This document shows, piece after piece, positions 53,958 through 57,564 of a stretch of DNA of 64,000 nt; position 1 is the stretch's first letter; every line of letters starts with the position of its first letter. Source of the DNA: Pseudomonadota bacterium (GTDB lineage: Bacteria > Pseudomonadota > Gammaproteobacteria > Burkholderiales > Thiobacillaceae); assembly GCA_030684775.1 (NCBI GenBank), contig JAUXXW010000083.1, forward strand, positions 16,452 through 80,451, given 5' to 3'. The notes under the pieces were generated by a model. It was not told the DNA's origin and searched no databases. It was given only the letters and a program-made list of their open reading frames with translations. The position numbers and the translations under genes were made by a program.

Positions 53958-54191
53958 ATGACCCCATCCCAGGCTTGCGTTTACTGCTCTTCCCCGGCCG
54001 AAGAAATCGGCAGGGTGAACTTCACCCGTGACTACACGGAAGTCACCTACCGCTGCACCAATCCGCGCTGTCAGGGCATCACCACCGCAATGGTGACCCT
54101 GAAGCGTGCCGGCCTGCCGGCGTCCGGTCGGTATCTCCACCCCGAAACCCTCCCCGGCCGCCAGGTCGAATTTTTCAAGGAACAACTGTGA
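53958..54191 (+). CDS. Ogr/Delta-like zinc finger protein (copy 1)
   Basis: CVYCSSPAEEIGRVNFTRDYTEVTYRCTNPRCQGITTAMVTLKRAGLPAS (Cx2C...Cx4C). Confidence 0.75.
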   Translation: MTPSQACVYCSSPAEEIGRVNFTRDYTEVTYRCTNPRCQGITTAMVTLKRAGLPASGRYLHPETLPGRQVEFFKEQL

Positions 54192-54469
54192 ACATCGCAT
54201 TGAAAACCCCCATCAAGCGCGGCGAGACGGCGATCGATGCCGTCGAGTTGCGCAAGCCCACCGCCGGCGAGCTGCGCGGCGTGTCCCTGGTCGAGTTGCT
54301 CCAGATGGACGTCGGCGCGATTTCCAAAGTCCTGCCGCGCATCACCATGCCGGCGTTGATCCCGGAAGAAATCGCCGGCATGGACCCCGCCGACCTACTG
54401 GCCATGGGCGCCACCATCTCCGGCTTCTTGCTGCCCACGGCGGCGCCGGCATCCCCTGACGTGAAATGA
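54188..54469 (+). CDS. phage tail assembly protein, P2 gpE-like
   Basis: IDAVELRKPTAGELRGVSLVELLQMDVGAISKVLPRITMPALIPEEIAGMDPADLLAMGATISGFL. Confidence 0.85.
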   Translation: MNIALKTPIKRGETAIDAVELRKPTAGELRGVSLVELLQMDVGAISKVLPRITMPALIPEEIAGMDPADLLAMGATISGFLLPTAAPASPDVK

Positions 54470-54479
54470 AGGAAAAAAC

Positions 54480-54710
54480 ATGAACACCAAACAGAAATGC
54501 CCGAATTGCGGTTCCCCGGCCGATGAAGTCGGCAGCGCGGCCAAATCCGTGGACCTGACCGAGTTTTCCTTTCGCTGCACCAACAACGCATGCCGGAGCA
54601 ATTTCACCGGCGTGCTCACCCTCACCCGCGGCGGCTTGCCTGGTGCGGAGAACTTCAACGGCCGCCCGCGCCCGGCGGATAAGGCTGGCGAAGCCGTCAC
54701 TGACTGCTGA
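54480..54710 (+). CDS. Ogr/Delta-like zinc finger protein (copy 2)
   Basis: CPNCGSPADEVGSAAKSVDLTEFSFRCTNNACRSNFTGVLTLTRGGLPG. Confidence 0.72.
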   Translation: MNTKQKCPNCGSPADEVGSAAKSVDLTEFSFRCTNNACRSNFTGVLTLTRGGLPGAENFNGRPRPADKAGEAVTDC

Positions 54711-54751
54711 TCGCAGCCGCCCACCTACTCACCCACCAACAGGACGCCCTC

Positions 54752-57232
54752 ATGGACAAGTTGCAACTCGAAGTTTTGCTCAAGGCCATCGACCAGGTAA
54801 CTGCACCGCTCAAGAGCATCACCGGCGCCAGCGGCGAAGCCGCCAAGGCGGTGCGCGAGGCCAAGGGCGCCTTGAAAGAACTGGAAAATCAACAGGGCCT
54901 CATCGACAAGTTCCGTGATACCTCCAAGTGGGTGGGCACCACGGGCAATCAGCTCAAGGTCGCACAAGAGAAGGTCCGCGAACTGAAGTTGGAAATGGAT
55001 GCCACCGACGAACCCACCAGGAAGATGGCGCGGGCCTTCGAGGCAGCGAAGAAAGAGGCCGGCGAGCTGAAGGACAAGCACGGCGAGTTGATCGCCAAAC
55101 AACAGACCTTGCGCGCAGCCCTGGGGGAGTCCGGCATTTCTACTACCGACATGGCGTCGCACCAGAAGCGCCTGAAAACCGACATTGCCGCCGCCACCGG
55201 CGAAGTTGAGCGGCAATCCACCTCCCTTGGCCAGCACAACGAGAAAATGCGCGCGCTCAACGCCGCGCAAGCCGAGTACCGCAAGAGCATCGACTTCCGC
55301 AATAAGCTAGCCACGGGGGGCGCCGTCACGATGGCTACCGGCGCGGCGATGGGTATGCCCTTCCTGGCCGCCTCCCGCGAGTACGGCGACTTCGAACAAT
55401 CGATGATGGGGGTAGCCAAACAGATGGAAGGCGCGCGGGACGCCAATGGCAATGTAACCCAGAGCTATCACGAGATGGCCCGCGCCATCAAAGCCATGAG
55501 CGAAGAAATCCCGATGGCGGCGAATGAAATTGCTGCCATCGTGGAAGCTGGGGCGCGCATGGGCATCCAAGGCAAAGAGAACCTGCTCACCTACGCCCGC
55601 CAGACGGCCATCATGTCCAGCGCCCTCGATCTTTCGGTGGAACAGACCGGGATGAACATGGCCACCATCGCCGGCCTCTACGAGGTGCCCATCGCCAACA
55701 TCAAGGAACTCGGGGACACCATCAACTGGCTTGACGACAACGCGAAGAGTAGTAGCGGCGACATCATCGACGTGATGAAGAGAGTGGCCGGCACGATGAG
55801 CGGCGTCATGGACTACCGGCAGACGGCGGCGCTGGCCTCTACCTTTCTGAGCTTGGGATCCCGTGCCGAAGTTGCAGCGAGCGCCACCAATGCGATGGTG
55901 CGGGAACTCTCTGTCGCCAACATGCAGGCGGACCGATTCCAGGATGGTATGAAATTGCTCAAGCTCGACTCGATGGAGATCCAGTCGGGCATGGCCACCG
56001 ATGCAACCGGGACCATCATCAAAGTTCTCGAAGCGATCAAGGCGCTCCCCAAGGAAAGGCAGATCGAAGGCGCTACGCGGATTTTCGGCAAGGAATTCGG
56101 CGACGATGCCGCGAAGTTGGCCAACAACTTAGACGAGTACCGCAAGCAACTGGGCTGGGTCAAAGATGCCCAGGCCAAAGGCAGCATGGACCGCGAGATG
56201 GGCTCGCAGTTGAAAGGACAGAAGGCCCAACAGAAGCTTCTTTCGAATGCCCTGGACAACCTCGCTTCCGATATCGGCGGCTCACTGAAAGGGCCGCTTG
56301 TGGCCCTGATCGGCGACATCCGGGGCGTGATTCAGGCCATCCGTGACTGGACGGCAGCCCACCCCACCCTGGTTTCCGTGCTGTCCACCGTGGGCGCCGG
56401 CATCGCCGCCGTCACCACGGCGGCGGGCGCCCTGGCGATCGGGGTGGCGGGTTTGCTAGGCCCCTTCGCCGCCGCCAAGCTGGCCATGACCAAGTTGGGT
56501 GTGGCTTCGCCCGCATTGGTCGGGAAGTTGGGGGCCATCCTCGGGCCGATTGGAAAGATCACCGCCGCCTTCACCGCCGGTTACGCGGCCGGCACGCTTC
56601 TCAACGACGGTATCACCGCATTGCTGACCAAGCTCACCGGCAAGAACACCAACCTGGGCTTCTGGATTTACGACCTGGTGCAGGCGGTCAAAGCCAAATA
56701 TGCCGAGTTGACCGCCTGGTTGAAGAAGCTGCCGGCGGAGATGGCTGGGATCGGTCATGCCCTGATCGACGGCATCATCGGCGGCATCAAGGCCCGCATG
56801 GCCGCCCTGAAATCCACCGTCACCGGGGTGGGACATGAAACCGTGGCCTGGTTGAAAAACACCCTGGGCATCAAGTCGCCGTCGCGGGTCTTCGAGGAAC
56901 TCGGGATCTACACCATGAAGGGGCTGGAACAGGGCATCAGCGGCGGCCAGGGCGCGCCGCTGGCGGCGATCGCCCGCATCGCAAAGCAGATGGGCGCCGC
57001 CGGCGCCGGGATGATGCTTTCCACCGGCGCCGCCCTGGCCAACATCGACCACCGCCCGCCGCTCGCCGGCGGCGCGATGGGGGGCGGCTACACCATCGTC
57101 AACCAGATCACCATCAACGCCGCGCCGGGCATGAACGAAAGAACCCTGGCGGAAGAAGTGGCGCGGCAAATCGACATGATCGAGCGGGCCAAGGCCGCGC
57201 GCGGGCGAAGCCTGCTTGGGGATCGGGCCTGA
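54752..57232 (+). CDS. phage tail tape measure protein
   Basis: 826 aa; coiled-coil N-term, SREYGDFEQSMMGVAKQMEG...EIPMAANEIAAIVEAGARMGIQGKENLLTYARQTAIMSSALDLS..., hydrophobic central segment, SPSRVFEELGIYTMKGLEQGI C-term. Confidence 0.93.
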   Translation: MDKLQLEVLLKAIDQVTAPLKSITGASGEAAKAVREAKGALKELENQQGLIDKFRDTSKWVGTTGNQLKVAQEKVRELKLEMDATDEPTRKMARAFEAAKKEAGELKDKHGELIAKQQTLRAALGESGISTTDMASHQKRLKTDIAAATGEVERQSTSLGQHNEKMRALNAAQAEYRKSIDFRNKLATGGAVTMATGAAMGMPFLAASREYGDFEQSMMGVAKQMEGARDANGNVTQSYHEMARAIKAMSEEIPMAANEIAAIVEAGARMGIQGKENLLTYARQTAIMSSALDLSVEQTGMNMATIAGLYEVPIANIKELGDTINWLDDNAKSSSGDIIDVMKRVAGTMSGVMDYRQTAALASTFLSLGSRAEVAASATNAMVRELSVANMQADRFQDGMKLLKLDSMEIQSGMATDATGTIIKVLEAIKALPKERQIEGATRIFGKEFGDDAAKLANNLDEYRKQLGWVKDAQAKGSMDREMGSQLKGQKAQQKLLSNALDNLASDIGGSLKGPLVALIGDIRGVIQAIRDWTAAHPTLVSVLSTVGAGIAAVTTAAGALAIGVAGLLGPFAAAKLAMTKLGVASPALVGKLGAILGPIGKITAAFTAGYAAGTLLNDGITALLTKLTGKNTNLGFWIYDLVQAVKAKYAELTAWLKKLPAEMAGIGHALIDGIIGGIKARMAALKSTVTGVGHETVAWLKNTLGIKSPSRVFEELGIYTMKGLEQGISGGQGAPLAAIARIAKQMGAAGAGMMLSTGAALANIDHRPPLAGGAMGGGYTIVNQITINAAPGMNERTLAEEVARQIDMIERAKAARGRSLLGDRA

Positions 57233-57234
57233 AC

Positions 57235-57564
57235 ATGGAACCGCCGGCCAACACCGCCGACCCCGCCTATCAGGCCATCCGGGCCAACATCGAATCGGGA
57301 GAACCTGGAATGTTCATCGCCTGCCCGCACTGCCACAGCCGGGCCAACATCCGCACTTCCCGCGCCATGTCGCTGTTGACTCGGGACGCTTACTGCCAAT
57401 GCACCAACCTGGCATGCGGCCACACCTTCAGGGCGGTGCTGGAGATCGTGGAAACGATTTCACCCAGCGCGGTACCGGACCCCGACGTGTCCGCCAAGCT
57501 GCTGCACACGGGGCAATCCAGCCCGGCGCGGCAATCCTCCGGAGGGGCCGCCGTGGTTGCATAG
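57235..57564 (+). CDS. Ogr/Delta-like zinc finger transcriptional activator (copy 3)
   Basis: FIACPHCHSRANIRTSRAMSLLTRDAYCQCTNLACGHTFRAVLEIVETISPSAVPD, a close match to the Ogr/Delta pattern. Confidence 0.88.
   Translation: MEPPANTADPAYQAIRANIESGEPGMFIACPHCHSRANIRTSRAMSLLTRDAYCQCTNLACGHTFRAVLEIVETISPSAVPDPDVSAKLLHTGQSSPARQSSGGAAVVA

What the first reader, a model, noticed from the sequence alone, without database searches (positions are those of the whole stretch)
53958..57564. Phage satellite-like element carrying its own tail module (gpE + tape measure) interleaved with three Ogr/Delta-like activators
Seen: order Ogr-like / gpE-like / Ogr-like / tape measure / Ogr-like, inside an element with P4-type integrase, AlpA, Toprim primase and DUF3987 but no capsid, portal, terminase, sheath/tube or baseplate genes. 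Established: P4 encodes a single Delta, related to P2 Ogr, that activates helper late genes; the tape measure sets tail length in tailed phages. Inference: the satellite may swap in its own tape measure and assembly chaperone to alter helper tail length or host range, with several activators tuned to different helper or own late promoters. The position of P2 E+E' is partly taken by a zinc finger gene. I do not know of a described satellite with this exact module.
Basis: partly seen in the sequence, partly recalled or inferred. Interest (0 to 1): 0.88.

Follow-up and report, generated by a model that had tools for sequence, protein, structure and literature searches.

The report
P4-type satellite with own tail core
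A virus parasite of the P4 family, sitting in a bacterial genome, carries its own tail "ruler" protein and the ruler's chaperone (and in sister copies probably the tail-tip hub too), so it probably builds hybrid tails from its own and its helper virus's parts, a trick so far shown only in the unrelated PLE satellites of Vibrio cholerae.

Summary
Window 50.3-62 kb, truncated at the contig end, is a P4-family satellite. It has a P4-type integrase at tRNA-Val, a cos-like 34-mer, a late-promoter box, AlpA, a Sid capsid-size protein (top Foldseek hit: P4 Sid, 7jw1), an Ogr/Delta activator, the C4 (P4 CI) immunity RNA, a P4-alpha-type primase and a helicase. Between Sid and Ogr lie an intact tail assembly chaperone (gpE) and tape measure protein (TMP, 826 aa), each preceded by a four-cysteine zinc-ribbon gene.

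No other P2 structural gene is present, intact or as a relic. An independent metagenome contig (L030) has the same gene order, TMP 84% identical with dN/dS 0.19, plus a gpD baseplate hub. Close relatives of that hub carry a fused OmpA domain. Burkholderiales P4-like satellites without the tail genes have the same backbone, so the module is an insertion. Satellite TMPs group together, sister to P2-like phage TMPs.

TMP length matches helper-type TMPs, so altered tail length is unlikely. The best reading is chimeric tails, as shown in 2026 for PLEs (TAC+TMP, with hub in some). Only one of the three "Ogr" genes is a secure Ogr/Delta. I found no report of this in the P4 family. Function is inferred, not shown.

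The parts
50109..50183 (+). tRNA-Val (cac), attachment site of the element (attL side)
   Evidence: ARAGORN, Rfam tRNA; integrase follows directly. L030 begins inside the same tRNA. No second copy of the tRNA 3' end in the window.
50334..51551 (+). P4-type tyrosine integrase (open frame from 50157)
   Evidence: PF22022, PF13356, PF00589; P4 Int 2e-86; 87% identical in L030
51548..52195 (+). unknown ORF; L030 has an extra Ogr-like gene in this place
   Evidence: no family match; L030:1397-1618 PF04606 1.6e-10
52478..52511 (-). cos-like site shared with P2-like prophages, P2/P4 and other P4-like satellites
   Evidence: 34-mer matches G043 P2-like prophage cos beside Q (blastn 8e-5 window, 3e-7 L030); 31/34 to reference set vs 21-23 in shuffles; P2 layout of G043
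52811..52833 (+). predicted Ogr/Delta late-promoter box GTTGT-N13-ACAAC (1 mismatch)
   Evidence: same box enriched at -90s of FI and -56 of V in P2-like relatives: 32 found vs 4 expected; perfect in L030, L152, L156 before alpA; only box with <=1 mismatch in the element, 0.28 expected
52934..53191 (+). AlpA/Vis-type excisionase-regulator
   Evidence: PF05930 1.8e-15; P4 Vis 8e-16
53212..53952 (+). Sid-like capsid size determination protein (246 aa; P4 Sid 244 aa)
   Evidence: P4 Sid phmmer 1e-7, hhalign prob 93%, E 3e-7 over 160 columns, not Psu; Foldseek top hit 7jw1_E, P4 Sid, E 2.6e-4
53958..54191 (+). small four-cysteine zinc-ribbon protein (ogr1), weakly Ogr-like
   Evidence: PF04606 E 0.035, below cut-off; paralogue of ogr2; conserved CxxC...CxxxxC
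54188..54469 (+). gpE-like tail assembly chaperone (TAC), no frameshift extension seen
   Evidence: PF10109 1.2e-14, phrog_103 1e-35; P2 E 3e-21; dN/dS 0.21 vs L030
54480..54710 (+). small Ogr-like zinc-ribbon protein (ogr2) where P2 has E'
   Evidence: PF04606 30.3 bits, cut-off 26.3; 70% identical in L030
54752..57232 (+). tail tape measure protein, intact, 826 aa
   Evidence: phrog_28 2.7e-129, PF10145 2e-22, TIGR01760 8e-62; 84% in L030, dN/dS 0.19; satellite TMP clade
57235..57564 (+). Ogr/Delta-type late activator (ogr3); sister element L030 has the gpD hub after TMP instead
   Evidence: PF04606 4.7e-20; P2 Ogr 4e-7, P4 Delta 5e-6
57690..57764 (+). isrK-like leader RNA next to C4, as in P4
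   Evidence: Rfam RF01394 44.5 bits, just under cut-off 50; same neighbour in P4, L151, L156
57789..57873 (+). C4 antisense RNA (P4 CI-type immunity RNA)
   Evidence: Rfam RF01695 65.7 bits, cut-off 45, E 3.6e-11
58061..58546 (+). unknown ORF u1 ahead of the replication genes
   Evidence: no family match
58398..59135 (+). unknown ORF u2 (start uncertain); weak relative in satellite L152
   Evidence: 7e-4; no family match
58994..60157 (+). P4-alpha-type primase (start uncertain)
   Evidence: PF23639, PF13362 Toprim_3, PF08273; phrog_510 primase 5e-78; P4 alpha 3e-18
60145..61575 (+). replicative helicase-like protein
   Evidence: phrog_5311 helicase 7.6e-9; no Pfam DUF3987 match
61852..62364 (+). 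two tandem related small HTH-like regulator genes (61852-62118, 62122-62364)
   Evidence: phrog_13517 1e-10 and 7e-10; similar to each other

Best explanation
This is a P4-family phage satellite that parasitises P2-like myophages and has replaced part of the helper's tail assembly core with its own. Steps 1-4 rest on homology or motifs; steps 5-6 are inference. (1) It integrates in tRNA-Val, stays quiet through a C4/CI immunity RNA, and replicates with its own primase and helicase. (2) Its DNA carries the helper-type cos site, so helper terminase can package it. (3) A Sid protein makes the helper capsid small. (4) A helper or satellite Ogr-type activator switches on one late operon, alpA-sid-zinc ribbon-TAC-zinc ribbon-TMP-Ogr, from the box at 52811. 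(5) The satellite TAC and TMP enter tails assembled from helper tube, sheath, baseplate and fibres, giving chimeric tails of near-normal length. In sister elements an OmpA-domain hub joins them. (6) The likely benefit is independence from, and interference with, the helper TMP (escape from anti-tail defences, preferential tailing of satellite capsids) rather than changed tail length.
For: P4-family identity: Sid, AlpA, integrase and primase, Ogr/Delta, C4 RNA, cos. Late box shared with P2-like relatives. Module not decayed: the whole block recurs in order in L030, dN/dS 0.19-0.21 for TMP and TAC, no other P2 gene or relic in 48-64 kb. Insertion into a known layout: L151, L152, L154-L157 carry AlpA and Sid, and most an Ogr, without TAC/TMP. 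TMP origin: satellite TMPs form a clade (SH-aLRT 94) beside P2-like phage TMPs. L031, a P2-like tail region with TMP 64% and TAC 72% identical, comes from the same metagenome as L030. Hub: gpD in L030 (PF05954 7e-17); its closest relatives are OmpA-fused and lie on contigs of the same lengths as satellite Sid/TMP. Working precedent: PLE TAC+TMP(+hub) chimeric tails (PMC12987554).
Against: No experiment; the host is an uncultured genome. No P2-like capsid or tube gene was found in the 96%-complete host genome, so no helper is seen in the same cell. The right end of the element is missing. Psu and epsilon were not found. The window element lacks the hub gene, so its TMP would have to work with a helper hub. 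Box and cos are predictions. The satellite TMP clade has moderate support in a quick tree.
Confidence: 0.62

Rival explanations
1. The satellite TAC and TMP are made to jam the helper: non-productive or competing tail parts that lower helper yield (interference or defence), without being built into satellite particles.
For: Tail assembly is a known target of satellite and prophage defences (Rta and Tai, PMC12987554, PMC11364771). The module lies in the predicted late operon. TMP is 54-77% identical to helper-type TMP (L031) along its length, perhaps enough to compete for helper partners.
Against: The full TMP including its C-terminal part, plus TAC and in sisters a hub, is kept under purifying selection (TMP and TAC; hub); a jammer would not need the whole functional set. 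PLE TMP does enter the virion (PMC12987554).
Confidence: 0.2
2. The tail genes are recently captured cargo with no selected role in the satellite, or part of a decaying P2-like prophage next to a satellite.
For: TAC and TMP are clearly of P2-like phage origin; the host genome shows no P2-like capsid or tube gene today.
Against: Same order and intact genes in an independent metagenome; dN/dS about 0.2; no relics of other P2 genes; several divergent members of the TMP clade; the genes sit inside the Sid-Ogr operon.
Confidence: 0.05
3. The module changes particle properties (tail length, or cell entry and host range through the TMP and an OmpA-domain hub) so that the satellite reaches hosts the helper cannot.
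For: OmpA (peptidoglycan-binding type) domain fused to gpD only in the satellite-linked hub group among the best 120 hits.
Against: TMP length is the same as in helper-type TMPs; no tail fibre or receptor-binding gene is carried; the window element has no hub.
Confidence: 0.13

Closest known systems
Enterobacteria phage P4 and P4-like satellites (Moura de Sousa and Rocha, PMC8628076)
   Same: Integrase type, AlpA/Vis, Sid, Ogr/Delta, C4/CI immunity RNA with isrK neighbour, alpha-type primase, cos-like site, dependence on P2-like helpers (inferred).
   Different: P4 has no tail genes and uses the helper tail; here TAC and TMP (and gpD hub in L030) are inserted between Sid and Ogr. No psu or epsilon found; alpha appears split into primase and helicase; order from integrase differs (co-directional).
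PLE satellites of Vibrio cholerae (PLE11, PLE1, PLE4; PMC12987554)
   Same: Satellite-encoded tape measure and tail assembly chaperone, with a baseplate hub only in some variants; myophage helper.
   Different: Unrelated satellite family and helper (lytic ICP1). PLE TMP is 20% identical to the helper's, here about 61-64% to the nearest P2-like phages; no Sid, Delta or cos in the P4 sense (own knowledge). PLE function is shown by experiment, here it is inferred.
cf-PICIs with putative tmp genes (PMC12987554, Extended Data Fig. 10)
   Same: Satellites outside PLE that carry predicted tmp genes.
   Different: cf-PICIs make their own capsids; this element has no capsid genes and carries a Sid-type capsid remodelling protein.
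P2-like prophages (P2; G043 C65; L031, L032)
   Same: Homologous gpE, TMP, gpD, Ogr, cos-like site and late-promoter box.
   Different: P2 and G043 have full head and tail gene sets, and L031/L032 are fragments with tube or sheath genes beside the TMP; here only gpE and TMP (plus Ogr) occur, with satellite genes.

Membership tests
P4-like satellite | Integrase | tested here: met
   P4 Int 2e-86; PF13356/PF22022/PF00589
P4-like satellite | AlpA | tested here: met
   PF05930 1.8e-15; P4 Vis 8e-16
P4-like satellite | Sid | tested here: met
   P4 Sid 1e-7 phmmer, hhalign prob 93%, Foldseek 7jw1_E E 2.6e-4
P4-like satellite | Delta (Ogr_Delta) | tested here: met
   57235-57564 PF04606 4.7e-20, P4 Delta 5e-6
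P4-like satellite | Alpha primase-helicase | tested here: met
   Primase part met (P4 alpha 3e-18); helicase is a separate, divergent gene
P4-like satellite | Psu | tested here: not met
   No P4 Psu match in 49.9-64 kb; published rules allow up to two missing components (PMC8628076); right end of element missing
P4-like satellite | Epsilon | tested here: not met
   No P4 epsilon match; divergent or missing; right end unknown
P4-like satellite | CI/C4 immunity RNA and helper-type cos (P4 traits, not in the seven-gene definition) | tested here: met
   C4 65.7 bits; cos 31/34 vs 21-23 shuffled
P4-like satellite | No virion structural genes other than capsid-remodelling ones | tested here: not met
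   TAC and TMP present; this is the variant feature, not part of the published seven-component rule
PLE-type chimeric-tail satellite (works like) | Satellite-encoded TMP and TAC | tested here: met
PLE-type chimeric-tail satellite (works like) | Satellite-encoded hub in some variants | tested here: met
   absent in window; gpD in L030 and OmpA-fused relatives
PLE-type chimeric-tail satellite (works like) | Satellite TMP present in virions, needed for transduction | not testable with these tools
   needs particles
P2-like prophage (decayed) | Relics of head, tube, sheath or baseplate genes | tested here: not met
   Only E, T and ogr match among 25 P2 proteins in 48-64 kb

The most novel reading that the evidence does not exclude
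A clade of P4-family satellites independently evolved the chimeric-tail strategy: it supplies the tail initiation core (chaperone, tape measure and, in some members, a baseplate hub with an OmpA-type peptidoglycan-binding domain), so that satellite particles carry a satellite-defined tail interior and possibly a different cell-entry behaviour from the helper.
Probability: 0.5. Interest if true: 0.87.

Novelty: new variant of a known kind. Interest (0 to 1): 0.76.

Why it matters
P4 is the textbook case of a satellite that takes over the helper head and uses its tail unchanged. A P4-family clade with its own tape measure, chaperone and sometimes hub would show that tail piracy arose in at least two unrelated satellite families with the same part list. 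That points to the tail initiation complex as a general control point in satellite-phage conflict. It is directly testable, because P2/P4 biology is well understood and the candidate cos site, late-promoter box and helper-type TMP are all identified.

Tried and rejected
- P2 prophage remnant: rejected, no other P2 gene or relic, intact and selected genes.
- Psu for 53212-53952: PHROGs calls it Psu-like, but that PHROG label is also put on P4 Sid, and direct comparison gives Sid, not Psu.
- Canonical Ogr box TGT-N12-ACA: absent. The lineage uses GTTGT-N13-ACAAC.
- attR: no copy of the tRNA-Val 3' end in the window; contig ends at 64000.
- E+E' frameshift: no slippery site.
- Close Sid-bearing relatives in named genomes: none in 118 family genomes, phage records or IMG/VR beyond L030. 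In 400 order genomes only distant satellites without tail genes were found.
- Genome contigs with TMP: 34 loci, best 47%; L111 (= G043), at 45%, is a full P2-like prophage, and none carries Sid.
- Helicase and primase scans of IMG/VR: one distant P4-like satellite without tail genes.
- gpD-OmpA whole-genome search was swamped by ordinary OmpA proteins.
- Defence genes in the element: nothing convincing.
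Full report
Observation. The block reported at 53958-57564 is real and intact: a small zinc ribbon, a gpE-type tail assembly chaperone (TAC), a second zinc ribbon, an 826-aa tape measure protein (TMP), and an Ogr/Delta protein, in one co-directional run with overlapping or closely spaced genes. The third Ogr (57235-57564) is a secure Ogr/Delta (PF04606 4.7e-20; P2 Ogr 4e-7 and P4 Delta 5e-6). 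The second is just above the Pfam cut-off and the first is below it. The first two are paralogues of each other and share the four-cysteine pattern.

What the element is. Upstream of the block, 53212-53952 encodes a 246-aa protein that PHROGs labels Psu-like. The same label is used for P4 Sid in the P4 record. Direct tests give Sid: phmmer 1e-7 to P4 Sid, profile comparison 93% probability over 160 columns, nothing to Psu, and the only Foldseek hit below 1e-3 is P4 Sid in the procapsid, 7jw1_E (model mean pLDDT 70). Downstream, 57789-57873 is a C4 antisense RNA, the P4 CI immunity RNA family, well above the Rfam cut-off, with an isrK-like RNA beside it just below cut-off. P4 and the satellites L151 and L156 have the same pair, and L152 has C4. 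With integrase, AlpA and the alpha-type primase, this is a P4-family satellite lacking detectable Psu and epsilon. The published rule for P4-like elements allows two of seven components to be missing (PMC8628076).

Packaging and late control. The one stretch before alpA with a clear match to P2-like phage loci is 52478-52511. It matches, over 34 nt, a site next to gene Q in a complete P2-like prophage of the same bacterial family. That site lines up without gaps with the P2 and P4 cos region (sequences). Scored against three reference 34-mers (P2, G043 and L151), the window has 31/34, L030 32/34, L154 and L155 32/34, L156 28/34 and L152 25/34, against 21-23 in shuffled sequence; L151 scores 34/34 only because it supplied one of the references. 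In P2-like relatives a palindromic box GTTGT-N13-ACAAC lies about 92-98 bases before the sheath gene and 56 before V: 32 found against 4 expected from shuffles, while the 12-base spacing of E. coli P2 is not enriched. The same box stands before alpA in L030, L152 and L156 (perfect) and at 52811-52833 in the window (one mismatch; 0.28 expected in 14 kb). This places alpA-sid-TAC-TMP-ogr3 in the helper late regulon, as a prediction.

Conservation. L030, a 7,970-bp IMG/VR contig starting in the same tRNA-Val, repeats the order int, alpA, sid, ogr1, gpE, ogr2, TMP at 64-87% protein identity. dN/dS between the two is 0.19 for TMP and 0.21 for gpE (Nei-Gojobori type, single pair). After TMP, L030 has a gpD baseplate hub (PF05954 7e-17) where the window has ogr3. 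The hub's closest relatives (P0125-P0128) carry a C-terminal OmpA domain, and three of the four lie on contigs of exactly the lengths that hold the Sid relatives P0002 and P0003 and the TMPs P0010 and P0013. Co-location there is inferred from equal contig length, not read. P4-like satellites elsewhere in Burkholderiales have the AlpA-Sid backbone, most with Ogr and C4, without TAC or TMP, so the tail genes are an insertion into a standard layout. L156 even has a single zinc ribbon between Sid and Ogr.

Origin of the tail genes. Satellite TMPs (window, L030, the 12,747-bp contig and three of unknown context) form one group with SH-aLRT 94, beside a group with the P2-like phage tail regions L031 and L032 and the 88,453-bp contig (quick tree; the careful search did not finish). 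L031 comes from the same metagenome as L030 and has tube, gpU and gpD. TMP identity to L031 is fairly even along the protein (54-77%). Length is 826 aa against 816-850 for helper-type TMPs, so changed tail length is not expected.

How it most likely works. The part list, TAC plus TMP with a hub in some members, is the same as in the PLE satellites, where satellite TMP and hub replace the phage proteins in the virion and not all PLEs carry a hub (PMC12987554). By analogy this satellite builds chimeric tails: helper tube, sheath, baseplate and fibres around its own TMP, guided by its own TAC. Homology, order, selection and regulation motifs are shown; incorporation and benefit are inferred. Rivals are interference with helper tails without incorporation, and altered entry or host range through the TMP and OmpA hub.

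Novelty. [quoted passage not shown] My paper searches found no P4-like satellite with tail genes, though only open-access papers are held and the supplements were not read. I rate it a new variant of a known kind.

Limits. The contig ends at 64000, so the right end is missing. No P2-like capsid or tube gene was found in the host assembly. Everything is computational.

Noticed in passing
window 62699-62913 and 63783-63997: Direct repeat of 215 nt, 80% identical, each within a small ORF (phrog_18652); between the copies lies a CopG/BrnA-like antitoxin ORF (62951-63337). Looks like a tandem toxin-antitoxin array, perhaps satellite cargo. The contig breaks in the second copy.
   Followed up: partly
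L030:6545-7969 and proteins P0125-P0128: gpD baseplate hub whose close full-length relatives have a fused C-terminal OmpA (peptidoglycan-binding) domain, not seen in the other P2-like gpD proteins among the best 120 hits.
   Followed up: partly
L151-L156 and P2-like loci L033-L140: In these P2-like phages and P4-like satellites the predicted Ogr box has a 13-base spacer (GTTGT-N13-ACAAC), not the 12 of E. coli P2 and P4.
   Followed up: yes
L154:2868-3257 (minus strand) and L152:10133-10762: In some Burkholderiales P4-like satellites the gene after Sid holds a motif MSKWIxVxLxGTLAE, resembling a HAD-type hydrolase, in place of the zinc ribbon.
   Followed up: no
L030:1397-1618: An additional Ogr-like gene overlaps the end of the integrase gene in L030, where the window has an unrelated unknown ORF (51548-52195).
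   Followed up: partly
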